Source: a virus
DNA: 64,000 bases
Virus record (IMG/VR): IMGVR_UViG_3300049259_000177
Coordinates: 50,595-114,594 of that record
Reading direction: 5' to 3' (one strand)
Shown here: positions 23,651-43,681 of the stretch, piece by piece
How the letters are laid out: every line of letters starts with the position of its first letter
How positions within the stretch are numbered: position 1 is the first letter of the stretch
Notes under the pieces: model-generated
What the model was told of the DNA's origin: nothing
The model's input: only the letters and a program-made list of their open reading frames with translations
The model's database searches: none
Program-made: the position numbers and the translations under genes

Positions 23651-24300
23651 GTAAGCGACTCCCACTCAACGATCTCGTAGCGGCCAAAGCCCTGCGACCG
23701 GGAGGCGCCGACGCCTTGCTGCTCGCCGGTCAGCCAGAGCATGCCCCACCTGTCGCGGGTGAGTTCCTCGGAGTCGGTGACGACGGTGAACGACACCTTG
23801 GCGTCGGTGACGTACTCCTCGTACTGGATGCCGGTGCCGCGCCAGGTGTGCACGAAGCGCTGGTTGATGCCAGACGCCTCGACGACACCGAGCGGGATCG
23901 TGTCTTCGACGACGAACACGTGCTCGGCGAAGTAGGACAGCGTGCCCTTACGACTCGGCCCCCAGCGGTCCTTAGGCCACCGGACGTTCGCGGCTTCCTT
24001 GATCGCGGCCTTCACCTGACGACCTTCGATGTAGAGCCCGTCGGCGTTGCGCTTGAACCCGTTGAGGTGCTTGAGACTGTCGACCTCGGCGATCGCTTCC
24101 TCGGCGGGGATGCCGCGCTCGGCCATCGTCGTCGCGACCATCTCGCGGATCAGGTCGTCCTTGTCGGCCATCTTCGTGCGTAGCCAACCCTCGGCGACCT
24201 TCGGGTCAGTTGGCACGCCACCGGCGAGCGTCGCGACGAGCAACGTCGCCCGGAAGCGATGCGGGTAAGCCTGCTCGCGCAGGTCATCGAACAGGGACAT
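23647..24300 (-). CDS. Unknown 217-aa protein with possible RAMP-like features
   Basis: ATG at 24300 with GGAG upstream. The frame stays open far upstream, but only through the low-complexity leader. N-terminal half helical (LIREMVATTMAERGIPAEEA). Middle ADGLYIEGRQVKAAIKEAAN, then FAEHVFVVEDTIPLGVV and QRFVHTWRGTG. C-terminus GEQQGVGASRSQGFGRYEI. The strand-helix IEGRQVKAAIKEA and the glycine-rich GVGASRSQGFGR loop recall the RAMP (Cas7/Csm3-like RRM) fold. This is a resemblance only; no search was possible. It lies in the cassette with a UvrD-type helicase and is preceded by an unusual C-rich leader. Confidence 0.75.
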   Translation of the reverse strand: MSLFDDLREQAYPHRFRATLLVATLAGGVPTDPKVAEGWLRTKMADKDDLIREMVATTMAERGIPAEEAIAEVDSLKHLNGFKRNADGLYIEGRQVKAAIKEAANVRWPKDRWGPSRKGTLSYFAEHVFVVEDTIPLGVVEASGINQRFVHTWRGTGIQYEEYVTDAKVSFTVVTDSEELTRDRWGMLWLTGEQQGVGASRSQGFGRYEIVEWESLT

Positions 24301-24634
24301 CGTGGCGGCTCCTGTGGCTAGTCGGATGGGATGGGGAGGGCGGCCGAGGCGTGGGTGGGGGAGTCGGGCCGAGGCGGGCTGGGGTCGGCGGGGCAGGGGT
24401 GGGTCGGGAAGTCGGGCTGGGGCTGGGGAGACACGGGAAGTCGGGCTGGGTGGGGTCGGGAAGACGTGCGGTGCAGCGGGCAGGCATGGGTGGTCGGAGC
24501 GGGAGAGGGACGGGCTGGCGAGGAACGGGTAGGCGCGGGCAGACCTGGGTGGTCGGACGCGGAGAGGGCCGAATAGGGCGGGGTCGGGAAGGCATGTCGG
24601 AGTGGGAAGGGCGGGGAAGCCTAGCCTTGGGAAG
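24301..24634 (-). repeat. 334-base C-rich, G-poor low-complexity leader
   Basis: On the transcript strand this gap is dominated by C and T with little G or A; the plus strand is correspondingly G-rich. Short imperfect repeats related to CTTCCCGACCC and CAGCCCGACTTCCC recur along it. No gene is credible here. The composition is that of a Rho-utilisation (rut) site in RNA; the plus strand has many GGG runs that could form quadruplexes. It forms the 5' region of the 217-aa gene. Confidence 0.7.
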
Positions 24635-25259: not shown

Positions 25260-26171
25260 TCACACGGCTCGGAGGTTGCCCCGACGGCCCGTTGCCGGGC
25301 GTGAGGCGCTCTCCTGCCAGTCCTCGGCGAGCGGGCCGGGGTCCAGCACCTTGCGAGCACGAGTAACGGCGACGTAGCGCAGCCGCAGTTCTTCCGGTGA
25401 CGGTTCCTTGACCTCGCCGTCCTTGCCGGGCTTGGCCTCGAAGTCGTCGCCGATGCGGACGTTCTCCCACTCCCTGCCCTTCGCTTTGTGCGCGGTGGAG
25501 ACGATCAGCGTGGCCGACGCCTCGGTGACGGCGCCGTCGAGCACGCCGAGCAGAGTCGGGCAGGAGAACTCGTTGATGAGCCGGACGAGGACCGCGAGGT
25601 CACTGCCGTCCGGGTCGCTGTCGACGTACTCCTCGACCATCGACCACGAGGTGAACAGGCTCAACTCGGGGAACGTCGTCGAGCCGTTGTCGATCAACTC
25701 CTGCGCGCCACGGATGAAGGCGCTCATCTGCTTGCCGCCGCCGACGAGGTGCACCGACGTGCCGTCGCGCTGCGCGTCGAGCGCGACCTTGAGGGCGCCC
25801 GCGTTGGTCCGGCACAGCACCGCGTCCGGCTTGTCGAGCGCGGCGACGGTGGAGAGGATCTGCGTGGTGCCCTTGATTCGCAGCGGGGTGTCCAACTGCG
25901 ACAGGAAGCGGTTGGCCTCGGTGGCGATCGCCGGGCCGAAGCGGAACGACTGCGAGAGGTAGAGCACCTCGACGCCGGGCTCGCGGGAGAAGATCCCCAT
26001 CGCGTCGATCGCGCCGCGCCACTCGTAGATGGCCTGGGCGCGGTCGCCGACGAAGACGCGCTGGCAGTGGGTCTGGCGGGCGACAACGCTCGCGATGACC
26101 GGGTCGGCGTCCTGCGCCTCGTCGAACAGGATGAAGTCGACGTCGAGGCGCGGGTTGCTCAACTGCCACAT
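25260..26171 (-). CDS. UvrD-type helicase, C-terminal fragment (motifs II-VI)
   Basis: 303 residues. Contains motif II FILFDEAQDADPV, motif III VGDRAQAIYEWRGA, motif IV FRFGPAIATEANRF, a UvrD_C type STAHKAKGREWENV, and YVAVTRARKVLDPG. It is the direct continuation of the helicase started at 27162, but in another frame. The first Met (MWQLSNPRLD) is probably not a native start, since homologues have a few more residues linking it to the upstream half. Can be expressed only if re-initiation occurs. Confidence 0.75.
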   Translation of the reverse strand: MWQLSNPRLDVDFILFDEAQDADPVIASVVARQTHCQRVFVGDRAQAIYEWRGAIDAMGIFSREPGVEVLYLSQSFRFGPAIATEANRFLSQLDTPLRIKGTTQILSTVAALDKPDAVLCRTNAGALKVALDAQRDGTSVHLVGGGKQMSAFIRGAQELIDNGSTTFPELSLFTSWSMVEEYVDSDPDGSDLAVLVRLINEFSCPTLLGVLDGAVTEASATLIVSTAHKAKGREWENVRIGDDFEAKPGKDGEVKEPSPEELRLRYVAVTRARKVLDPGPLAEDWQESASRPATGRRGNLRAV

Positions 26172-27162
26172 CTCCCTGCGACTCGGCGCGGCGACGGATG
26201 CCGAGCGTGTTGCCCTGCGTGCGCGTACGCCAGGTGGTCCGTCCGATCCGGTAGTCGTCCCCCCGTCGGGCGAGGTACACGACGTGGTTGCCGTCGGTCA
26301 GGTCGGCGTCGAGGCGCACCACGCACCGGTGTTCGGCCGTGTATGCGCTCGTGCGCCCGCGAGAGGTCGTCGCCCGCACGAGATCGCCGTCGTAGTGGCG
26401 CTGGCCGACCGCTGTGACCTTGCGGCCCTGACGGCGGATGGAACCGAGCCTGCTCGCAGCCGGGGTCCACGACATCACGTAGTCGCCTTCGCGGAGCGTC
26501 TCGATGGGCACCTCCTCGAACGACGAGCCGAGGTGGCCGCCACGGCTCACCACGCGGCGTACGAGCGTCCCGGTGGGCTGGCAGTCGTGTTGGAAGCGCA
26601 GTTGACCGTCGGTGTCGTTCAGGTCGGCCCACGCCTTGCGGGCGAACGGGACAAGGTGGCGGGCGAGTTCGCGGTGGTTGGCGCCACGACGTTTGGTGAC
26701 CTCGCCTTCGAGGCCCTCGATGAATGGCATGTGCGTGACGTCGATCTCGCGGTCGGCGGAGGAGCAGAACCGGGCGACCATCTGCATCGTGTAACGGGCG
26801 AGCACGTCCTTGGTGACGGTCTTCTCGCCGACCCGGATGCCCTCGTTGATGCCGATGATCTTCGCGGCTTGCCAGGCAGGGACGCGGGCGTTGGAGCGCA
26901 GCCGATGGGCGTAGGTGCGGCCGACTGCCTTCATCGCGTAGGAGTGGGCCGTCCCGCAGACCATGTTCGAGGGGAAGGTCTGCTTCGCCTCACCGGCGAT
27001 CGCGGCGTTGTAGGCGATGTACATGCCTCGGCGGCTCGGGGTAGCGCTCGCCATCAGTTTCAGTGTCGAGGTCTTTCCGGTGCCTGCACCGGCCTCCACG
27101 ACGATGTTCTTGCGAGCGCGGAAGGCATCAACGATGGCCTGCTGCTCGGTGGTCGGGTTCAT
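25600..27162 (-). pseudogene. UvrD-type helicase, N-terminal fragment plus truncated intein
   Basis: ATG at 27162 after GGAG, following a type E promoter and leader hairpin. Residues 1-193 are the N-terminal helicase domain (Walker A EAGAGTGKTSTLK; GTAHSYAMKAVGR). At Cys194, after LRFQHD, an intein begins. It has lost its C-terminal blocks: near 26172 it runs straight into helicase sequence, out of frame. Translation would continue into about 190 meaningless residues to 25600. A deletion that removed the intein's second half and a few extein residues best explains this. The helicase family is common in actinophage genomes. Confidence 0.75.
26172..26583 (-). mobile_element. Remnant of an intein in the helicase gene (5' half only)
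   Basis: Starts with Cys (CQPTGTLVRRVV), then EEVPIETLREGDYVMSW (block A region) and SAYTAEHRCVVRL (block B). This is followed by RGDDYRIGRTTWR and TQGNTLGIRRRA, the start of the endonuclease or linker region of this intein type. No block F or G and no terminal Asn remain, so splicing is impossible in cis. The helicase insertion point is just before motif II. Confidence 0.8.
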
Positions 27163-27180
27163 TGCCCTGTCTCCTGTCCG

Positions 27181-27236
27181 GCGGGTCGCTCTCCCGCACA
27201 ACCAAGACCGTACACCCGCTTAGCGTGAGAGCGCAA
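27181..27236 (-). promoter_or_regulatory. Type E promoter, operator and leader hairpin (helicase)
   Basis: -35 TTGCGC at 27231-27236. Operator CGCTAAGCGGGTG at 27213-27225 in an 18-base spacer. -10 TACGGT at 27207-27212. Hairpin GCGGG-AGAGCGA-CCCGC at 27181-27197, then GACAGGAG before the ATG at 27162. Confidence 0.7.
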
Positions 27237-27304
27237 GCGGAACGGCTTGAATCCGCCAGGGCCGAGTTTTACTCGGGACGGAGGACAGTTTTATTGCGCT
27301 CGAC

Positions 27305-28012: not shown

Positions 28013-28225
28013 TCACGCCCCCCGGAGACGCCGCGCCTCTGCAAGCAGCGCGGGTGGAGCGGCGGAGCCGAACGGGAGGTCGAGGACGCGCGCAGCAGCG
28101 GTGGCCTGGTCTACGCCGAGTGCGCGGGCCAGGTCGTCGAGGGTGGCTACTGGGCCACCGCCGGGCAGTCGCACGTCCCAGGACAGTGTCTTGATCCAGT
28201 CCTCGTTGCCCGTGGATTGCGTCAT
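28013..28225 (-). CDS. Unknown 70-aa protein
   Basis: ATG at 28225 inside the ATGA that ends the giant MuF gene, so translationally coupled to it. Contains DWIKTLSWDVRLPGGG and a helical ATLDDLARALGVDQATAAAR segment that could be a helix-turn-helix. Because it is coupled to a toxin-like polyprotein, an accessory or protective role is conceivable, but nothing in the sequence shows it. Confidence 0.6.
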   Translation of the reverse strand: MTQSTGNEDWIKTLSWDVRLPGGGPVATLDDLARALGVDQATAAARVLDLPFGSAAPPALLAEARRLRGA

Positions 28226-31200
28226 GCCGCCACCCGCAAGCGGGGGGTGCGTTCGTCGCCCGACTGGTTCCACGCGCTGACCCGCCATTCACCCGGTCCG
28301 GCAAGCACGACGAACTCGCTCGCCGTCAGGTCACCCATGCCTGAGCGCGGCATCGACAGGATGCGCGTGGCGGGCACTGTTCCCGCCAGCACCACGCCGA
28401 CCCCCTCCGAGGTGTCTGCGAACTGCTGGGCGGCGCCACGATCCGCCGAGAACGACGACAACGGACGCATGTCGATGCTTGTCGTGGTCCCGTGTGTTGC
28501 CCACACCGGGGCGGGGGGAAAGTCTTCCTCGGGCACGTCGGCTGGGTCCGAGAAGTGCATCCCGCGATACAGGGTCACCTGTGTGATGCCCGCTGCCGCC
28601 AAGCGAGCCTGCGTCTCCTCGTACTGCGCGCGGAGGAAGGTGCGCAGAACCGCCTCACGCTCTGCCTTGATTGCGTCGACCCTGGTTCGCACATCGGCAC
28701 CTAGTGTCCACGGCGCCGCTCCCGGTAGGCCGAACTCGTCGACCGCAATCTCCTGCAACGCGAGGGCGTCCGCGTCGCTGTCGTTGGAGGTCATCGACCA
28801 GCGCTGGACCAGCCTCGACACGGCATCGCGCCGTAGGGCGGTGCGGACGGTTTCATCGCCCGGCTCGAACTCGCCTGCGGCGTCGGAAAAGAACTCGACT
28901 GTGCCGTCGTCAGCGGTCTCGCTGGACCAGCGCGAGCCGCTAAGGCTGGCGACCGTGTCCTGGCCCAGCAGGGACGCGTCCGGCACGGTCACCATCCGGG
29001 CGGCGATGGCCGCATACACCTCCGTCTTGGCCTGGGTGCGCGCTTGCTCGCCATCCGGGCTGAGGTTCAGGTCGGCCGGATGCGCCGCTGTTCCGAGACC
29101 GGACGATAGAAGTGCCTGCACCGAGGGATCGAGCGGTGCGCCCATACCGATGTAGTCGACCGGAACGGCGACTGCCGGTTCGACCGATCCCGGCGTTGCC
29201 CCCGGCCGGTTAGGGCCGGGGGCCGCTGCTAAAGGGGTTGCAGCACCGCCTCCGGTGACTGCGAACGAACCGCCGAGGTCGCTCGTGATGCGGACCTCGC
29301 CGTACTGGCCGGTGACGGTGCGCGCTCCGGCGACCCCCCGGCTCTTGCTTGGCGGGTTCGAGTCGCGGCCAAGGCTCGCGAGGGTGCCGAACATGAAGTT
29401 GCGCATGTCCTCGTCGAGATAATCGCTTCCGCCGAACAGCGATTCGATGCCAGTAGTGAACACCTCGTGCGCGTCGCCCCGGCCGTAGTCCTTGCCGGTG
29501 TAGTGGCTCTTGAACTTGTCCTTGCGGCCGACTTCCTTCGGGCCCGAGTAGATCCGCGATACGGTCTCGCGGCTGCGGGCCCCGACCGCCCCGGTGGAGG
29601 TCCGCGACCACAGGAACGCATCCTCGGCAGCGACGAGGCCGGGCACGACCCGCTCCATGTGGTGCCCGAGTTCGTGCACCGCGACCTTATTCTTCTCGTC
29701 CGGACTGCCGCCGGAAATGGCGATCTCACGCGTGGCGACGGCGTAATGGCCGCGCGCGGTACCACGTACCTTGAACGCGCCGAGAGACCGCGCTCGCTCG
29801 GCGGTCAACCAGTCGCTCGGGTACCACTGCTCGGCCCACCGCAGTGCTTTCACGCTCTGCGCACGCTCGCCGGTCGAGTAGGCCATGCCGCCGCCGGGCG
29901 GCGTGCCGACCGGCCGGATCTCGCGCAGCACGTCACGCGCCGCGTTGGCGCGTGCCTCACGGATGCGGACCTTAGCCTCCTCGCGCTGGCCGCGTGTCGT
30001 CATCCACATCTCGCGCTGAGCCTCACGGCGGCGGTTCAAGCCTTCGAGCGCGCCGCCGGGCTCCTCGGCGGCGACAAGCGCGTCGCGCATCTCGTTGCTG
30101 ATCGCGGTGAGCCGCTGATATTCGGCAACGTCGTCACGTGAATCGGCGCCGGTGCGCGAGGACTGGTCGATGAAGTGCCGCAACAGCGAGACGCGGTTGC
30201 GCAGGTTCCGTTCGTCCGGCGCACCGGAGATCTCGGATCCACGTCCCTCGTCCCAGGCACGGTCGAGGAACGGCTGGGCGACCTGCTTGCGGACATCGCG
30301 TGCGTCGCGGTCGAGTTGCGTCATCGACTTGTACGCCGCGTCGCTCTGCTGGTCGAGGCCCTCGATGTAGCGCTCCGGGTTTCCGCCCATATCCGGCAGT
30401 GCTTCGGCGAGACGGCGACCGTACTCCTCCTGCATCGCGGCGCCGACCTGGCGCAGTGCATGCAAGTGACGCATCGCCGTCTCGCCCGGGCCGTCATCGG
30501 CGGCGCGGTCGGCTACATGCTGGTTCTCGGTGATGATCTCCGGAGTCTTGCCCGCTTCGAGGTCGGCGAGGGTGAAGTCACCGAGGGTCGAGACCTGCAT
30601 CTCGCGCTGGCCGAACTTGTCCGGGTCGGACGGCAGCATCGCCTGCCATGCGGCGACGCGATCCTTCCAGTCCCCGCCGGGTTCCGGAAGTGCCTCGTCC
30701 GGCTTGTTCGCGTCGATGCGGTCACCACCACCTGCGAGATGATCCGCCGCCTCGTTCGTCAACTGCTGCGCGCGCCCGTCGATGATGTCCTGCGCGCGCG
30801 AGTCGGGCCCGGTCGCCATCCGGTCGAACAGTGCGCCGAGGCTCTCGGAGTACAGCGGCGAGTTCGTGCCCGCGACCGTCGTCTTCGAGCGCATCTCGGC
30901 AAGGGAGTCGGTGAGCGCGTTGCGGTACGCCTCGCGCACCATCGTGTCGGCGTTCTTGCGTAGCGACGCGGTGCGGCCCGCGTCCTGGCCGAAGGACTGC
31001 CCGGCGATGACGGCCGCCGCCCAGCGCGGCGACGGCTGGAAGTCGCCCTGCTGGACGAGCCGCGCGAGCGGGACGCCGTCCCACTTGTTCGCGAGAGTCG
31101 GCAGCGCGCCGCCGGACTTACCGAGATCGCTGTCGAGATGCGTCTTGAACTTCTCTAGTGCTTCCCGCCGGGCACTGAGTAGCGCATTGCGTACGCGCTG

Positions 31201-34200
31201 CTCGGCGGCCGCTCGCTCCTCGTCGGTTGGCACGTAGGTGAAGGTGCCGACATTCGCGCTCTTGAGTGCCGTCTTCGCGCGTGCAAGCGGCAGCATCGCC
31301 TCGGTGTAGTCGACCGTCGGCGGATTGCTCCGGATCTGCTCCATGACGCGGCCGACCATCTGGTGGTCGGCTTCGCCATCTAGCGGCTTCGCATCGGCGA
31401 GCGCGTTGCGGATCACGTCGTACTGGCGCGTCAACGCTTCGGAGACTATCGACTTGCTGCGGTCACCGAGCGAGTTGGCGATCGCGCGTCGCGTCGCGGA
31501 GTCGAGGTTGATGCTGCGTGGGGTCAGTTCGGAGTTCAGGTCATTGACGGCGTAGCCGTATCCGTTGACGGCAGTGCGGCGGTCACGGTGCTGTGCATCA
31601 AAGACGGCATCGAGAATCCAGCCACGGCCGTTGCCTTGCGCGAGGCTGATGTCGGTGAGCATCGCGGCACGCTGGTCGTTGAGCGCGCGGGCGATCGCCA
31701 TTGCCATGATGTTTGCGGAGCGGTGCGTCTCGCCGTCCTGGCGTTGCTGTTCCAACGCCTCAGCGGCACCGGGTTCGCGCGAGAGTAGTACCGGCTTGAC
31801 GTCGCCGTCGTAGACCGTGTGGGTGTACCACGCTCGCTGGCCGTCCTCTTGTAGACCGATCTCGGTGCCCGCGATGCTCTTGCCGGTGCCCTCGTCGAAG
31901 CCCTCCGTCGGTGAGACGTTGTGCACGGTGCCGACGAACTCCTGGCCGGTCGTCGAGTTGGTGATGCGGATGCGGTCGCCGACCTGGATCTCGTTGTGGT
32001 TGATCGCCTTCTCGCCCTGGCTCTTGTCGGGCTTCTCATCGACGATCGGCTTGGGGTCCGGCGGCTGCGGGTGAATCCATACCGACCGGCCGCCCACGTA
32101 GTTGTCGGCGCGTATACCGTCGGCGGTCTCGACGTGCACCTCGATGGCGCCCCTGATGGCACCGACATTGCGGCTGCGCCGGACACGCACCACCTTGCCT
32201 GTGACGTCAAGGCTAGACGGGTCGACACCGAGCGCCTTCGCGGTCGCCTCACTGCCCGGGATGGTGACGTACATGCCCGCGCTTATCTGCGAGATCGTGC
32301 CGAGTTGCGACTTCGAGTCATCGGCCGTCGGATCGCCCTCGACCGGGTCGGGCTGGACCGTGGGGTCCTCGGCCGGGCCTGCGTCGACGGCGAGGTTAGT
32401 GCCGCGCATCACCGACACGTTGTGCGCGCGCCCGGCCGCGTCCGTGACGGCGAAGTTGACGATACGTCCGCCCTGAGAGCGCGTGGTCTCGGTTACCTTG
32501 CCGTAGACGTCACCGAAGCGAGCCCACTGCCCGGCCTGCACATCGTGTGCGCGAGTGCCTTGCCCGCCGCCGTGCAGCAGGTGGTTGTCGAGCGCGTCGA
32601 AGGACAGTGCGGCGCGGTTGAGCGCACCGGCGCGACGCGTGCCGGACCGTTGCGCCTCGTCGCGCAACGCGGCAGCCATTGCCTGTGCCTCGTTGCGGTT
32701 GAGCGACTGGTAGTTCAGCAACTTGTGTGCCGCGTTCCGCACCTGCGGGTCGGCGTGCGTCTTGTGCAGTTCGTAGCCGTGGATCATTCGGCGCTGGTAG
32801 GTGCGCAGCGCGACGCGCCCGGTCGGCTGCGGCCCGGGCGGGGCGGGCGTGAACGGCTGTACCTCGATGGCAGTGCCGAATGGCATCGTCTCCTCTTCGG
32901 CCGCGCCCTGGCGGCGGTAGGTGAGGTTGACGATGTCGCCGTTCTCGCCGTACGGCTCGGCGTTGGCGATCGTGACCGGCGTCGGCTGGCCGAGCGGCAG
33001 CATGACGGTGTCGCCCGCCTGCAACTCCCCTACCGTTCCGGGCTGGCGCGGCCCGGGCGACGGCTGCGGGTTCGGTCGCCGGTCGATCTCCGCCGGGGTG
33101 ACCAGCATCGTTGGGTCGGCGTACAGCGAGTCCTTCGTGCCATCCGGGTGTGTGTAGTCGACGCGGATCATGTCGGGCTCGTCATCGTCGCGGCCGACCG
33201 CGTCGACGTGCGCAGCGACGTCGCCCTGCGGGCCGGGTAGCATGACGTGGTCCCCCGCCTTGAGGTCGCGAATCGCGACGTCAGCCGGGGGTGCCGACAT
33301 GACGGGTGCGTCGTCGCCAGGCTCGGAGACGACCGACAGGCCACTCGCGTCGAGGGTGTGCCAGTTGTCGCCGCCGTCAGGCGAGTAGTAGAGAGTTTGC
33401 AGGCTCAGCGTCGTGCCGTCCTGCAAGACCCCGTAGTCGTCGAAGATGTGCTGCGGCTCGACGTGGTTGTCCGGCGCGACCTCGTCGGCGACGAGGATGA
33501 GACCCGCCTGCGACCCAAGTTCGTCGAGTCGCGAGTCTTCCCCGAGTGAGTCTTCGTGCGCCAGGTTCTCGTCGGTGTAGGCGAACGAGTCGGCGGAGTC
33601 CTCGGGGTTGTGGGTGTCCGCATCGGCCCAGTAGCGCCCGGCCTGGCCGCCGAGGATGCCGTGAACGATCTCGTCGGCGGTGATGTCACCGTTGAGCATC
33701 CGGCGTGCGTACTCCGGCGGGACGTTGATGACCATGCCCCGGTTGAGGGTGCCCGGTGGGTAGCGGTCGGGCAGCACGTTCGTCGGCGTTCCTGGCACGT
33801 CAGTCTGTGGGGCCGGAGTGCTGGCCGGAACGGACTGCGGGCCACCGAAGCCGAACTCGTTGATGTCATTGCCGTCCCAGCGGATGTCACCGGCCCGCAC
33901 TCGCGTGCTGTAGACCGGCCAATCGTTCGCTGGGTTGTCGTCGTTGATGGCGTGCTGCTGGGCATAGGTCTGAGACAGTGTGACCCAGTCGCCCGGGTTG
34001 ATGTGCGTGACGCCCGGAGGCGCAGCGCGGTAGATGGTGACCAGCGCTTCCGGATTGCCGCGTGCGGCGCGAATCGCGGCCTCGGACTCGTCGTCGTAAC
34101 CCATCTCCGGGTCGCCGTACTTGTGGAAGTGCATGTTGTCGTAGAAGTCGGCACTCGTGACCATGCCTCCGCCGGAGTCGGTGGCGAGCAGGTTGTCCAG

Positions 34201-36729
34201 CGACGGCCCGTCGAGCGACGGCAGGTGGCTGCCCTGGTAGTCGGCGGCGTCCTGCGGCGAACCGGGGGCGACGGGCACGGCGCGCGTCGCGTCGCGCGCG
34301 TTCGCAACGAGGCGCTGCGTCACAGCATCATCCGGGTTCTGCTCGTCGAGCGAGTCGAGTGAGCCGGTGAGAGCGCCCTCGGCCTGAGCCTTGTCGTCCT
34401 CGTTGCCGTATGTCTGCGCGTCGGCGAAATCGCGCAGTGCGTCGGCAACCGCGACCCGGTAGGAGTCGTTCCCGTCACCCTCGAACTGCGCAGCAAGATC
34501 GTAGAGTCCGGCGGCGTCTTGCTCGGTCTGCGGCGGGGCGCCGCCGGGCGTTCCGCTATCGGTCGCCGGGACGACGCGAGTGTGGCGGGAGATAGCGCCC
34601 TGGTCGGTATTGACCGTGCCACCGCCGCCAGAGCCGCCGGTCGCACCGGTCGCACCGGTGATAGTGACGGTCTGGCCGTCTCGCGGGTGTCCGTCGTGCT
34701 GGATGGTGACACGCGCACCGACCGGATGGATACCCGCAATGGTCGGCGTGACCGCCTGGGGACCTCGTGCCACGTGCTCGGCCGCGAGCATGCGGGTGCG
34801 CTCATCCGGGGTCTTGTCGGGCTTGCGGGCGAGTCGCTGCGCCTCCGCCGTAGCCTCCCCGGGCGTCATGTCCGTGACGGCCTTGGGCTCGTGGCTATCC
34901 GTGACCCGTGGCCGGTCCTTCGCGGCCTTGAGAACGTCGATTGCCTGGCCGACTGTCGCGTCGTTCCACGCGCCCCGGTGGGCGTGCAGTTCGGCGGCGA
35001 GGTCCGGGTGGTTCGGCTTGACGACGTCGTCGACGAGGCCGGACAGATGGCCGGTCTGCTTCGACGTCGCCTGGCGGGTGCCAGCATGACGTGGGCCGTT
35101 GCGGATCGAGCGGTTGGCGTTGACGACGCGATGCGTCGCGTACTCGTGCGGATCATGGGTGATGCGTTGGTGCATGAGTGCGGCGCGCAGGTTCGCCTCG
35201 TTCGTGCCGATGAGGTCACGGCCCGCCTTGAGGACGGCGGCGCGGTTCGGGTGGTCGGCGGGTAACTGTCGATCGGTCATGGCGTGCGCGTCGTGCGCGG
35301 CGGCGAGCCGTCGCTCACGGACACCGACGTCGCTCGCAGCCCGGGCGATGTCGGCAGCGTGTTGGGCGTCGAGGGGCTGTGGAGCCTGTCCCACCGTCTG
35401 CCGCAGGTGCGCAATGTGGTCGGCGTGCGCCGCGCTCTCGGGCGGTGCGCCGACCGCGTGCGGGTGATGGCTGTCCGGCGCGGCTGGGTCGGTGTGTGAC
35501 GGCATCAGTGGGTGGTCGGGACGGCTTGCGACCCGCTTGCCAACCTTGCTGACGTCACCGTGCGGGGCGCCGCCGCCGCCTGCCTTCGTGACCGTGACGT
35601 CAGTGCGGCTGACCGTCTCGGTCTTGCCGTTGGCGTGCTCGATCTGCACGTGGTTGCGGTCGACGACGTTGAGGACCTTCGCGACGTCACCGGCCAGGGT
35701 GCGAACCTCGCCCCCTTTGGAGATGAACTTGCCGTGCCGGTCGCGGGGATGCTCGTCAGGCTTCCACTCGTACGACGCGGTGCCTACGCGCACCGTCGTG
35801 TAGCCGGTGTGCGTCAACTTCATCTCGATCGTCTTGCCTTCCCGCGACTGAGGCAGGAACTGGCCGGTGCGCTTCGAGCGCCAGTCCACTCGACAGCGGC
35901 AGTTGGCAGTTTCCCGGTACGGCGCACGCGGGTCTCCGGGGAAGCGCAGCAGGGCGCCGCCAACAGTGAACGGGGTACCGAGCGGCTGCTCCTGGCCGTC
36001 GGCTTTTGCGTGCGACGGCCGCACCTTCTCGTCGCGCCGCGAGCGCCAGCGGCGCAACACGTCGACCGACTGGTCGGCTTCCGCGATGTGGTCGGCGGCG
36101 GCCTGCCGGGCGCCTTCGACGGTCGCGGTAGCCGCCTGCACCGCGAGCCCCTTCGCCCACTCCTGCATCGCCGGATAGTGCGCGAGAACCGCCTCGCGGA
36201 TGGCGGGCATGTCGGCGCCGGACTGATCGAGAGAGTTGATGAGGTCGCCGAGCAACTGGATCTGCCGGGCGGCCGACTCGGCGATCAGCGCGAGAACCGT
36301 CTCGACGATCCCGGCGGTGATGAGCGCGAGCATCGAGGAGTCCGGCTCCTGGTCCTCGCCGGACAGCGCAACGTAGAGTGCGGCGGCGGCGGCGATCGCA
36401 GCCGGGGAGATCACCGGCTCGCTCGCCGACTGGGCGTCGTCAGGCGCGGCTTCCTCGTCGGTCGCCTTCGCGGCGTCCAGCGCCTTGGTGCCAACACGGG
36501 TGTCGTGCTCGTACTCGGGCACCCAGTGGCGGGTGCCCTTACGTTGCTGCGGGCTCTCGACGCGGGTTATGGTCCGGTCCACCCAGCGCGAGGCGAGATG
36601 GCTCAGCGCAGCAGCCAGTGCGGCTTCGAGGCGGTCGCGGTCCTTGTCGTCGGGAGTGTAGGTCTGCCAGGACTCGACGGCTTTGGTGCGGATGGGAACG
36701 ACGCGTAGTCCGATCGGTTGTGCGGTCAC
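28222..36729 (-). CDS. Giant MuF polyprotein with ADP-ribosyltransferase-like modules and HExxH protease
   Basis: 2835 residues, starting in an overlap with the portal stop. About 1-290 is a MuF head-morphogenesis domain (RRDEKVRPSHAKADGQ near 236, NCRC near 281). About 890-965 is ART-like (IYRAAPPG, GDWVTLSQTYAQQHA, NDINEFGF). About 990-1120 is a second ART-like block (NRGMVINVPP, GQAGRYWADAD, GLILVADEV). About 1150-1640 holds five SH3/KOW-like beta modules beginning AGDHVMLP, AGDTVMLP, AGQWARF, AGMYVTIP and VGDRIRIT. Long helical spacers follow. About 2340-2400 is a zincin with VHELGHHME. About 2715-2815 is an R-S-E type ART (LYRGMHFS, PLSSFSAD, TASEFVVLAG). MuF proteins are carried in the capsid, so the enzymes are probably injected effectors. 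Confidence 0.85.
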   Translation of the reverse strand: MTAQPIGLRVVPIRTKAVESWQTYTPDDKDRDRLEAALAAALSHLASRWVDRTITRVESPQQRKGTRHWVPEYEHDTRVGTKALDAAKATDEEAAPDDAQSASEPVISPAAIAAAAALYVALSGEDQEPDSSMLALITAGIVETVLALIAESAARQIQLLGDLINSLDQSGADMPAIREAVLAHYPAMQEWAKGLAVQAATATVEGARQAAADHIAEADQSVDVLRRWRSRRDEKVRPSHAKADGQEQPLGTPFTVGGALLRFPGDPRAPYRETANCRCRVDWRSKRTGQFLPQSREGKTIEMKLTHTGYTTVRVGTASYEWKPDEHPRDRHGKFISKGGEVRTLAGDVAKVLNVVDRNHVQIEHANGKTETVSRTDVTVTKAGGGGAPHGDVSKVGKRVASRPDHPLMPSHTDPAAPDSHHPHAVGAPPESAAHADHIAHLRQTVGQAPQPLDAQHAADIARAASDVGVRERRLAAAHDAHAMTDRQLPADHPNRAAVLKAGRDLIGTNEANLRAALMHQRITHDPHEYATHRVVNANRSIRNGPRHAGTRQATSKQTGHLSGLVDDVVKPNHPDLAAELHAHRGAWNDATVGQAIDVLKAAKDRPRVTDSHEPKAVTDMTPGEATAEAQRLARKPDKTPDERTRMLAAEHVARGPQAVTPTIAGIHPVGARVTIQHDGHPRDGQTVTITGATGATGGSGGGGTVNTDQGAISRHTRVVPATDSGTPGGAPPQTEQDAAGLYDLAAQFEGDGNDSYRVAVADALRDFADAQTYGNEDDKAQAEGALTGSLDSLDEQNPDDAVTQRLVANARDATRAVPVAPGSPQDAADYQGSHLPSLDGPSLDNLLATDSGGGMVTSADFYDNMHFHKYGDPEMGYDDESEAAIRAARGNPEALVTIYRAAPPGVTHINPGDWVTLSQTYAQQHAINDDNPANDWPVYSTRVRAGDIRWDGNDINEFGFGGPQSVPASTPAPQTDVPGTPTNVLPDRYPPGTLNRGMVINVPPEYARRMLNGDITADEIVHGILGGQAGRYWADADTHNPEDSADSFAYTDENLAHEDSLGEDSRLDELGSQAGLILVADEVAPDNHVEPQHIFDDYGVLQDGTTLSLQTLYYSPDGGDNWHTLDASGLSVVSEPGDDAPVMSAPPADVAIRDLKAGDHVMLPGPQGDVAAHVDAVGRDDDEPDMIRVDYTHPDGTKDSLYADPTMLVTPAEIDRRPNPQPSPGPRQPGTVGELQAGDTVMLPLGQPTPVTIANAEPYGENGDIVNLTYRRQGAAEEETMPFGTAIEVQPFTPAPPGPQPTGRVALRTYQRRMIHGYELHKTHADPQVRNAAHKLLNYQSLNRNEAQAMAAALRDEAQRSGTRRAGALNRAALSFDALDNHLLHGGGQGTRAHDVQAGQWARFGDVYGKVTETTRSQGGRIVNFAVTDAAGRAHNVSVMRGTNLAVDAGPAEDPTVQPDPVEGDPTADDSKSQLGTISQISAGMYVTIPGSEATAKALGVDPSSLDVTGKVVRVRRSRNVGAIRGAIEVHVETADGIRADNYVGGRSVWIHPQPPDPKPIVDEKPDKSQGEKAINHNEIQVGDRIRITNSTTGQEFVGTVHNVSPTEGFDEGTGKSIAGTEIGLQEDGQRAWYTHTVYDGDVKPVLLSREPGAAEALEQQRQDGETHRSANIMAMAIARALNDQRAAMLTDISLAQGNGRGWILDAVFDAQHRDRRTAVNGYGYAVNDLNSELTPRSINLDSATRRAIANSLGDRSKSIVSEALTRQYDVIRNALADAKPLDGEADHQMVGRVMEQIRSNPPTVDYTEAMLPLARAKTALKSANVGTFTYVPTDEERAAAEQRVRNALLSARREALEKFKTHLDSDLGKSGGALPTLANKWDGVPLARLVQQGDFQPSPRWAAAVIAGQSFGQDAGRTASLRKNADTMVREAYRNALTDSLAEMRSKTTVAGTNSPLYSESLGALFDRMATGPDSRAQDIIDGRAQQLTNEAADHLAGGGDRIDANKPDEALPEPGGDWKDRVAAWQAMLPSDPDKFGQREMQVSTLGDFTLADLEAGKTPEIITENQHVADRAADDGPGETAMRHLHALRQVGAAMQEEYGRRLAEALPDMGGNPERYIEGLDQQSDAAYKSMTQLDRDARDVRKQVAQPFLDRAWDEGRGSEISGAPDERNLRNRVSLLRHFIDQSSRTGADSRDDVAEYQRLTAISNEMRDALVAAEEPGGALEGLNRRREAQREMWMTTRGQREEAKVRIREARANAARDVLREIRPVGTPPGGGMAYSTGERAQSVKALRWAEQWYPSDWLTAERARSLGAFKVRGTARGHYAVATREIAISGGSPDEKNKVAVHELGHHMERVVPGLVAAEDAFLWSRTSTGAVGARSRETVSRIYSGPKEVGRKDKFKSHYTGKDYGRGDAHEVFTTGIESLFGGSDYLDEDMRNFMFGTLASLGRDSNPPSKSRGVAGARTVTGQYGEVRITSDLGGSFAVTGGGAATPLAAAPGPNRPGATPGSVEPAVAVPVDYIGMGAPLDPSVQALLSSGLGTAAHPADLNLSPDGEQARTQAKTEVYAAIAARMVTVPDASLLGQDTVASLSGSRWSSETADDGTVEFFSDAAGEFEPGDETVRTALRRDAVSRLVQRWSMTSNDSDADALALQEIAVDEFGLPGAAPWTLGADVRTRVDAIKAEREAVLRTFLRAQYEETQARLAAAGITQVTLYRGMHFSDPADVPEEDFPPAPVWATHGTTTSIDMRPLSSFSADRGAAQQFADTSEGVGVVLAGTVPATRILSMPRSGMGDLTASEFVVLAGPGEWRVSAWNQSGDERTPRLRVAA

Positions 36730-41128: not shown

Positions 41129-43681
41129 TTAGTCGTCGTCCTTGCCCGCGCGGTGGTCGGACCAGCCCTCGGGCACCGGCGGCGGGACGTAGGAAGGTCG
41201 CTCGTGTTCACGAGCCATGTCGACGAAGCGGCTGTAGTGCCCTTGGAAGACGACCGGCACGGTACGGGTCGGGCCGTTGCGCTGCTTCGCGACGATCAGG
41301 TCGGCTTCGCCCGCGCGGGGTGACTCTTTGTCGTAGTAGTCCTCGCGGTGTAGCAGGATCACGACGTCCGCGTCCTGCTCCAAACTGCCCGACTCACGTA
41401 GGTCACTCAACATTGGCCGCTTATCGCCGCGCGTCTCCGGATTGCGATTCAACTGTGACAGCGCCACCACCGGCACGTTCAGTTCCTTCGCGAGCAACTT
41501 GAGCGAGCGGGTTATCTCGCTGACCTCCTGCTGGCGGTTCTCGCTGCGTCGGCCGAGGGTCGTGAGTTGCACGTAGTCGATGACGACGAGGCGCAGGTCG
41601 ATGCTCGCCTTGAGCCGTCGGCACTTGGTGCGCATCTCGATCGGCGTGGTCAGCGGGCTGTCGTCGATGTAGAGCGGAGACGACACGATCTCACCGAGCC
41701 TGCTCGCGAGCCGCGCCCAGTTCTCATCGCTCATCCGTCCGCCGCGAATGTTCTCCAACGGCACGCGGGCTTCCGCGCTGAACAACCGCATCACGATCTC
41801 GGTGCGGCCCATCTCCAACGAGAAGATGACCGACGCGCGCCCGTAGCGGATGGATGCCGAGCGCATGAAATCTAACGCAAGAGTTGAGTTGTGCGTGGGA
41901 ATCATGCTTCGACTCGCGAGGTAGAGACCGTCGACGGCGGCCACCTGCACGCACCGGACGGGCACGCTCTCTACTGGCCGCACGTCAGTAATCATCCGGT
42001 GGGACAGACGGACAGCGGGTCGTCGACTCTGATGCGCCCGCCGTTTGCGTTCCAATCGGAATACATCTTCACCGGCTGCGAAAGTCAGCGTATGCGCCAC
42101 GGACGACTCCGGCGTGCGCCCCGGCACTTGCTTGCGAAACCACCCACACCGATAGCCGAGGCTCACAATCAACTCGTACACATCGGCCGCTAAGCGCACG
42201 CTCGTGGAGGTGAATTGCACCTGCCCGGAGGGCATCACTGTTCCGTCGGTGTCGAGCAGCCCCGCGAGCAGGGCGCGTCGCTGCCGCTCGGAGCCACGCA
42301 GATAGGCGCGGGGCACATGCTTGTCGCCCAGAACTCCGAGAGCACGCAGGCGTCCCTGGACGGGCCGGTGAGTACACGGCGGCATCGGCTGTCCCTGGCG
42401 TCGGCATCGCGCCCATAACGTGTTGCACGGCTGGCAGTGCCCAGTTCGCGCATGGCCGCGTCCACACGTCGCTTCGGTCTTGGTCATCGCCACGGTCACG
42501 GCGTTCGGCTTAACGGCAGTGACGGCAGCCGGAATCCCGACGCGAGTGAACGCCTCTACGTAGTGAGGCGCGTCATCGCGATGGCAGGTGATCCGGCTGC
42601 CAGCGCTGTGCCCGTCGCCGAGCCACACGCCGAGCACGTACGGCGGCACTGGCACGTCAACGTCAGGCAGGTCTAGTGGTGCGGTTAGCCGCACGCTGTG
42701 GTTCCGGCGCCCGTCGGCGGTCGGACAGAGTACCGTCTCGGCGATCTGCCGAGTCGTGACAACGAGTGGAGCGGCTCCACGTCGCCGGACCGCGCGGGTC
42801 GCCGTCTCCCATTGATGTTCGGCGTCGGCTATGACCGTTGTGCCGTCGGAGAACACCACCTCATAGCAGGACCGACCAACCATCGTCTCGGTTGCGGCCA
42901 CCACCCGGGTTGGGCATCCATCGGCGCCGAGTAGCCAGTCCCCGACGGCCACCTCGCCCATCGTGGACCAGCCGGTGGGGGTGGGCAGCGGCGTGTCTAA
43001 TGCCAGGGCTTTGCCCAGACCTGGACGCCCAGCGACGATGACCAACTGGCCGGGATGCAGACCGTGGATCAACTCGTCGAGTTCGCTGAAACCGGTAGGA
43101 ACACCGATCGCACCGGCACCCTGTCCGCGTGCCTCGATCGCTTCGATCTCGTTCATCGACGACTCGATGACGTCTTCGAGCCGGACGATGTCCTGTGCAT
43201 GGCTGCGTTGCGCGATGCTGAACAGTTCGCCCTGCGCGGCGGTGAGCAAGGCGTCGGCGTCCATGCCGGTGAAGTCGGCATCCGCCTGGTGGCCCATCTG
43301 CACAATGCGGGTTCCGGCGGCGATCATGCGGCGAAGGACCGCTTTGTCGTGCACAATCTGCGCGTAGAACCTGCAATTTGCGGATGTCGGCACTGACGCG
43401 ATGAGGGTGTGCAGGTAGGTCGCGGTGCCGATCTTCACCGTGACTTTCCGCTGATCACATTCGGCGAGCACGCTGATCGCGTCGACCGGCTGGCCGTTGC
43501 CGTACATCTCGATCAGCACGCCGTAGAGCAGTTCGTGTGCGGGTCGATAGAAGTCGTTGGGGGTGAGCACGTCGACAGCGTCGGCGATCGCTTCCTGCGA
43601 CAGCATCATCGACCCGAGCACAGCCTGCTCAGCGTCGATCGCCTGCGGCGGCGTACGGCCGCCGCCGTCCTCCTGGCTCAC
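41129..43681 (-). CDS. dnaB: Replicative DNA helicase DnaB with intein
   Basis: 850-residue precursor, GTG start. Residues 1-224 hold the N-terminal DnaB domain (PPQAIDAEQAVLGSMMLSQE) and the first half of Walker A (GRPGLGK). Residues 225-598 are an intein. Residues 599-850 are the rest of the RecA-like motor: STLALDF completes Walker A, then SLEMGRTEIVMRL, Walker B LVVIDYVQL, and SQLNRNPETRGDKRP. Spliced length about 476 residues, normal for DnaB. Insertion in the P-loop means the helicase is inactive until splicing. The phage thus supplies its own fork helicase and clamp. Confidence 0.95.
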   Translation of the reverse strand: MSQEDGGGRTPPQAIDAEQAVLGSMMLSQEAIADAVDVLTPNDFYRPAHELLYGVLIEMYGNGQPVDAISVLAECDQRKVTVKIGTATYLHTLIASVPTSANCRFYAQIVHDKAVLRRMIAAGTRIVQMGHQADADFTGMDADALLTAAQGELFSIAQRSHAQDIVRLEDVIESSMNEIEAIEARGQGAGAIGVPTGFSELDELIHGLHPGQLVIVAGRPGLGKALALDTPLPTPTGWSTMGEVAVGDWLLGADGCPTRVVAATETMVGRSCYEVVFSDGTTVIADAEHQWETATRAVRRRGAAPLVVTTRQIAETVLCPTADGRRNHSVRLTAPLDLPDVDVPVPPYVLGVWLGDGHSAGSRITCHRDDAPHYVEAFTRVGIPAAVTAVKPNAVTVAMTKTEATCGRGHARTGHCQPCNTLWARCRRQGQPMPPCTHRPVQGRLRALGVLGDKHVPRAYLRGSERQRRALLAGLLDTDGTVMPSGQVQFTSTSVRLAADVYELIVSLGYRCGWFRKQVPGRTPESSVAHTLTFAAGEDVFRLERKRRAHQSRRPAVRLSHRMITDVRPVESVPVRCVQVAAVDGLYLASRSMIPTHNSTLALDFMRSASIRYGRASVIFSLEMGRTEIVMRLFSAEARVPLENIRGGRMSDENWARLASRLGEIVSSPLYIDDSPLTTPIEMRTKCRRLKASIDLRLVVIDYVQLTTLGRRSENRQQEVSEITRSLKLLAKELNVPVVALSQLNRNPETRGDKRPMLSDLRESGSLEQDADVVILLHREDYYDKESPRAGEADLIVAKQRNGPTRTVPVVFQGHYSRFVDMAREHERPSYVPPPVPEGWSDHRAGKDDD
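41888..43009 (-). mobile_element. Class 3 (WCT) intein in the DnaB P-loop
   Basis: Residues 225-598 (374 aa). It starts with Ala (ALALDTPLPTPTGW), not Cys or Ser, and ends PTHN before Ser599. The class 3 marker residues are present: Trp291 in EHQWET (block B), Cys577 in PVRCVQV (block F), Thr596 in PTHN (block G). LAGLIDADG-type motifs occur in VLGVWLGDGHSAG and LLAGLLDTDGTV. A CGRGHARTGHCQPC segment between them could bind zinc. The layout matches the DnaB intein type described from mycobacteriophage Bethlehem. Confidence 0.9.

What the first reader, a model, noticed from the sequence alone, without database searches (positions are those of the whole stretch)
25260..27162. UvrD-type helicase broken by a half-deleted intein
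The gene has a normal N-terminal half, then intein blocks A and B, then no C-terminal intein. The C-terminal helicase half resumes in another frame just before motif II. This is an intein caught in decay, destroying its host gene, yet the promoter and leader are intact. Perhaps the halves are used as separate polypeptides.
Basis: partly seen in the sequence, partly recalled or inferred. Interest (0 to 1): 0.7.

Follow-up and report, generated by a model that had tools for sequence, protein, structure and literature searches.

The report
Phage helicase broken by intein deletion
A phage helicase gene carries only the front half of a self-splicing protein insert and its rear half is out of frame, so the gene looks broken by a single deletion; intact relatives of the insert hint at an unusual nuclease-like domain.

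Summary
Confirmed: on the minus strand an SF1/UvrD-type helicase starts normally (27162-26584), runs into an intein N-half (26583 to about 26164, blocks A and B), and continues in another frame at 26171, 16 residues before motif II. Of 161 related helicases, 160 have no intein; one (L074) has a complete 297-aa intein at the same residue, 68-71% identical to the window's half. The window lacks the intein's C half, the splice junction, the +1 Cys and three more host codons. Intein and host homology overlap in GATGTGGCA, read in two frames, as expected of one microhomology deletion of about 0.48 kb. Both halves are otherwise undamaged and no other such break was detected in 64 kb: recent, single, probably real, but unverified without reads. 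'Used as two polypeptides' is unsupported. The intein family (33 distinct intact copies) has a conserved middle domain modelled with GIY-YIG-like topology; sequence profiles do not confirm this. That is the more novel lead. The broken gene itself is an ordinary pseudogene.

The parts
27158..27262 (-). leader (promoter-like core, GGGAGAGCGACCCG element, AGGAG) before the helicase; one of about 14 copies in the record
   Evidence: 72 bp identical to another copy
26584..27162 (-). N-extein of the SF1/UvrD-type helicase, 193 aa (MNPTTEQQ...FQHD), motif I at 27090
   Evidence: (phrog_1967 DNA helicase)
26164..26583 (-). intein N-half: Cys1, block B TAEH, and the first part of the middle domain (VVYLARRGDDYRIG...R)
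26164..26172 (-). junction word GATGTGGCA, read GAT GTG GCA in the intein frame and (G)ATG TGG CA in the host frame: presumed deletion point
   Evidence: mechanism inferred
25260..26171 (-). C-extein of the helicase in the +1 frame (MWQLSNPRL...), motifs II-VI intact

Best explanation
The phage carried a helicase gene with a complete in-frame intein inserted after HD in HD^CYLK, upstream of motif II. One deletion of about 0.48 kb removed the intein's C half, its His-Asn end, the +1 Cys and the next three host codons. It probably ran between a short word in the intein (GATGTGGCA, read D-V-A) and the same word in the helicase (read M-W-Q). Because the word is read in different frames, the deletion also shifted the frame. 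The precursor can no longer splice in cis or in trans, so in this phage copy the gene should make no active helicase. Shown: the halves, the missing parts, the frame switch, the intact relative. Inferred: the parent sequence, the microhomology mechanism, loss of function, and that the deletion is real rather than an assembly error.
For: 157 of 161 related loci join N- and C-extein through exactly 12 nt (xYLK), 3 differ by small lengths without an intein, 1 (L074) has 903 nt = 297-aa intein + 12 nt. The window's gap is 412 nt, not a multiple of 3. Intein N-half 68-71% identical to L074's at the same residue. Intein homology runs to 26164 (converted from record coordinates) while host homology starts at 26171: an 8-nt overlap, the mark of a microhomology join. 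In L074 the two equivalent places share GATGTGG. GC3 keeps a coding pattern in both halves, and this is the only stop-less one of 4 frame switches detected on the minus strand. The junction 61-mer shares at most 13 nt with the rest of the record, so a repeat-driven assembly collapse within the record is unlikely. 0 of 43 family inteins found elsewhere are truncated (the search patterns came from both ends of the intein).
Against: The parental intein sequence is unknown, so the repeat in it is a guess from the junction. A minority variant or chimera cannot be excluded. The frame-switch scan is coarse. The in-record search for an intein C half relied on one relative's sequence.
Confidence: 0.78

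Rival explanations
1. Assembly or library artefact: the real phage has a complete intein and the contig joined two reads or variants wrongly.
For: Metagenome-type virus record; no independent copy found. Short shared words exist at both breakpoints in L074.
Against: The longest exact words shared by the two breakpoint regions in L074 are 7 nt, and the junction shares at most 13 nt with the rest of the record, short for an assembler overlap. No other stop-less frame switch was detected in the window, and very long ORFs (2835, 1686, 1201 aa) are intact.
Confidence: 0.15
2. The two halves are made separately and work together as a two-part helicase.
For: Motifs and GC3 intact in both halves; TTG at 26162 has GGAG nine bases upstream.
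Against: The N product would carry 137 aa of intein plus about 203 aa of wrong-frame residues; the xYLK segment present in nearly all relatives is missing; 0 of 161 relatives are split this way.
Confidence: 0.04
3. Split intein: the missing C half is encoded elsewhere and the protein is trans-spliced.
For: Phages do have split inteins in fractured genes (PMC7891396, passages read).
Against: No match to the L074 C half in the record, while the N half rings strongly; the C-extein here has no intein C half attached and has lost the +1 Cys.
Confidence: 0.01
4. Programmed ribosomal frameshift across the junction makes one long protein.
For: Both frames are open across the junction.
Against: It would need a +1 shift and would leave half an intein inside the helicase in place of xYLK; none of 161 relatives shows this.
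Confidence: 0.02

Closest known systems
Intact intein-bearing helicase in L074 (IMGVR_UViG_2884693830_000001, 95,254 bp)
   Same: Same insertion residue (HD^CYLK); intein 68-71% identical over the shared half
   Different: Complete 297-aa intein, one open frame; helicase parts only 43% and 46% identical and placed elsewhere in the tree; the record otherwise shares only weak protein matches with the window's
Bacillus phage SPO1 gp34.33, Vibrio phage RYC and Escherichia phage JohannJBalmer UvrD-type helicase inteins
   Same: Inteins of the same CQP...HN kind (SPO1, RYC; JohannJBalmer's is more distant) in phage UvrD-type helicases
   Different: Inserted at motif III (VGD..Q), not before motif II; intact
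Arthrobacter sp. FB24 Arth_1007 (DnaB) intein pseudogene, PMC3196547 (abstract read)
   Same: Published example of a dead intein in a gene once annotated as of phage origin
   Different: There the intein lacks catalytic residues and its exteins are not a helicase; here half the intein and part of a real helicase are deleted
Homing-cycle decay of inteins (Gogarten and Hilario, PMC1654191, abstract read)
   Same: Inteins lose function after fixation
   Different: Here the loss takes the host protein with it instead of leaving a splicing mini-intein

Membership tests
Functional (class 1) intein | N-terminal nucleophile and block A | tested here: met
   Cys1 CQPTGTLV at 26583; Cys1 is invariant in A4
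Functional (class 1) intein | Block B TxxH | tested here: met
   TAEH at 26340
Functional (class 1) intein | Blocks F and G ending in His-Asn | tested here: not met
   Absent between 26164 and the C-extein
Functional (class 1) intein | Cys, Ser or Thr at +1 of the C-extein, in frame | tested here: not met
   xYLK deleted and frame shifted; L074 has CYLK
Split intein | Intein C half attached to the C-extein, encoded apart | tested here: not met
   C-extein starts directly at MWQLS; no C-half match in the record, control for the N half positive
SF1/UvrD-type helicase | Helicase motifs I-VI present | tested here: met
   Motif strings read in the two frames (motif names recalled); Pfam PF00580/PF13361 and phrog_1967
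SF1/UvrD-type helicase | All motifs in one reading frame | tested here: not met
   Frame changes between the N half (motif I) and motif II
GIY-YIG superfamily (middle domain of the intact intein family, not of the window copy) | beta-beta-alpha-beta-alpha core fold | tested here: inconclusive
   AF2 model pLDDT 86.6 has E4-11 E14-21 H32-40 E44-51 H54-68. VIA-align rows 1-11 are GIY-YIG entries (UPF0213, Slx1, UvrC; for the first two families the link to GIY-YIG is recalled or from PMC1564403), Z 4.9 (rmsd 4.5, 82 aligned) down to 3.9, next row 2.8; plain Foldseek against PDB gave nothing at E<=0.001
GIY-YIG superfamily (middle domain) | Sequence profile match | tested here: inconclusive
   No GIY-YIG family among Pfam hits of 31 members; PF01541 does not ring at the intein in any of 25 records (positions compared by hand); hhalign to 8 phage GIY-YIG sequences probability 1%
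GIY-YIG superfamily (middle domain) | Catalytic Tyr-Tyr-Arg-Glu set (recalled) | tested here: inconclusive
   Y7, R16, G18, R36, E61 invariant in 30 of 30 rows, but the second Tyr would be Arg

The most novel reading that the evidence does not exclude
The intein half in this gene belongs to a phage intein family (33 distinct intact copies of 273-302 aa found here) whose homing endonuclease is a compact GIY-YIG-like domain set between Hint blocks B and F, a combination that a 2006 survey of the superfamily said had not been found. It spread horizontally among helicases at several sites and among other genes; the window shows what happens when such an element is cut through its nuclease domain.
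Probability: 0.4. Interest if true: 0.55.

Novelty: new member of a known kind. Interest (0 to 1): 0.32.

Why it matters
As a broken gene it is one more phage pseudogene, useful as a clear snapshot of an intein failing to leave cleanly: the deletion removed the splice site and killed the host gene. It also suggests that this helicase is dispensable for some phages, if the record reflects a viable virus. The larger interest is the intein family: a conserved nuclease-like middle domain in all 30 aligned intact copies, possibly GIY-YIG, which can be tested directly by expressing L074's intein.

Tried and rejected
Searches for an intein C half in the record: L074's C half, none; Pfam Intein_splicing, none, but that model also misses the known N half, so it says nothing. 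PF00580 finds only the two halves of this gene in the record, so no second UvrD-type helicase was seen. Close relatives of the intein by strict patterns: only L074; none in genome contigs; broader patterns gave 43 loci. PDB sequence searches with the middle domain gave nothing meaningful. Foldseek against PDB with the middle domain gave no significant hit; against predicted viral structures the 3 hits with E<=0.001 are full-size proteins (782-924 aa), presumably intein-bearing ones, and several weaker hits below are named GIY-YIG proteins, E 0.07 or worse. hhalign with GIY-YIG sequences failed. Papers: a statement that GIY-YIG was not known in inteins was read in PMC1564403 (passage, dated 2006); later searches listed no paper whose listing reports one, in this library only. 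Truncated inteins in phage genes: the searches listed none that fitted; listings only.

Full report
What is there. The window is bases 50595-114594 of a 114,594-base IMG/VR virus record. The gene lies on the minus strand. From 27162 it encodes MNPTTEQQ...FQHD (193 aa), an SF1 helicase start with motif I; PHROG 1967, 'DNA helicase', matches both halves. At 26583 the frame runs into CQPTGTLVRRVV..., and at 26340 into TAEH. The host sequence resumes as MWQLSNPRLDVDFILFDEAQD in the +1 frame at 26171 and runs to a stop at 25260. GC at third codon positions marks the N frame up to about 26.3 kb and the +1 frame from about 26.19 kb on.

What is missing. I compared 161 related helicase loci (81 from IMG/VR, 80 from GTDB genomes, mostly actinobacteria such as Streptomyces and Micromonospora). 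In 157 the same two halves are joined by exactly 12 nt (most often HYLK); in 3 there are small length differences and no intein; in 1, L074, there are 903 nt, that is a 297-aa intein plus CYLK. The window's intein half aligns with L074's from residue 1 to 144, 71% identical, against 43% and 46% for the two helicase parts. So the window lacks the C half of the intein, the His-Asn end, the +1 Cys and three more host codons.

How it happened. The intein homology ends at 26164 and host homology begins at 26171. The overlap lies in GATGTGGCA, which reads Asp-Val-Ala in the intein frame, where L074 has Ala-Glu-Ala just before a conserved Trp, and Met-Trp-Gln in the host frame. In L074 the two equivalent places share GATGTGG. 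A deletion between two copies of such a word explains both the loss of about 0.48 kb and the frame shift. The parent sequence is not in hand, so this step is inferred.

Is it real? Reads were not available. Within the record the junction shares at most 13 nt with any other place; a coarse scan found four frame switches on the minus strand, three with stops and only this one without; giant ORFs are intact. I take a real deletion as likely and an artefact as the main rival.

Does anything still work? No intein C half was found in the record, and the +1 Cys is gone, so trans-splicing is very unlikely. The ATG at 26171 sits directly on its purine run; a TTG at 26162 has GGAG nine bases upstream, so weak expression of the C half cannot be ruled out. 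The N product would end in about 203 wrong-frame residues. PF00580 finds no other UvrD-type helicase in the record. The simplest reading is a recently killed gene still under its phage-wide leader.

The intein family. In a tree of 146 distinct helicases, L074 groups (SH-aLRT 99) with two intein-free helicases from Streptosporangiaceae genomes and not with the window; well-supported branches force two changes of intein state (quick method, window on a long branch). With higher identity in the intein than in the exteins, this points to horizontal spread. A wider search found 43 loci, 33 distinct, all complete, 273-302 aa, at three or more sites in helicases (HD^CYLK, DE^CQDAD, motif III) and in other genes; relatives in Streptococcus phage records lie in genes annotated as adenine-specific methyltransferases. 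The SPO1, RYC and JohannJBalmer helicase inteins sit at motif III, so the window's site differs from theirs.

The middle domain. Thirty of the 33 distinct intact copies were aligned (together with the window's half; for the domain alone). Between Hint blocks B and F all 30 keep Y7, R16, G18, R36, W46 and E61. AlphaFold models the whole intein with pLDDT 90.9; its splicing part matches hedgehog and intein structures at Z 15-19 in the rows shown. The middle part alone (pLDDT 86.6) has strands and helices in GIY-YIG order, and the 11 best entries among 351 chains re-aligned are GIY-YIG proteins (Z 4.9-3.9; unrelated rows from 2.8). These Z values are low, Foldseek itself gives no significant PDB hit, Pfam gives none and profile comparison fails. 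I therefore report likeness, not membership. A 2006 survey states that GIY-YIG enzymes had not been found in inteins (PMC1564403, passage); my later searches listed no report of one.

Verdict. The broken gene is ordinary; the intein family it exposes deserves a test.

Noticed in passing
L074:2552-2938 and A5 rows; window 26295-26164 holds its first part: Middle domain of this intein family has GIY-YIG-like predicted topology and invariant Tyr, Arg, Gly, Arg, Glu; fold support weak but specific, sequence support absent.
   Followed up: partly
window 41888-43009 (-), inside ORF 41129-43681: DnaB-like helicase carries a complete in-frame intein of about 374 aa at the P-loop (GLGK^A...THN^STLALD) with a LAGLIDADG_3 match; it starts with Ala, as class 3 inteins do (recalled).
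   Followed up: partly
window 27262, 23538, 44724, 46093, 52236, 54128, 60430 (-) and seven places in the rest of the record: A leader with core ACGCTAAGCGGGTGTACG, then GGGAGAGCGACCCG and AGGAG before a start codon, recurs about 14 times by my reading; possibly a phage-wide promoter and operator.
   Followed up: partly
window 28222-36729 (-): A 2835-aa ORF with head-morphogenesis/portal-like, ParB-C-like and other stretches; unusually long multi-domain protein.
   Followed up: no
window 24250-24620: Low-complexity Pro/Arg-coding repeats between genes or in a disordered tail.
   Followed up: no
L192, insertion DE^CQDAD: Another member of the intein family sits inside helicase motif II itself.
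   Followed up: no
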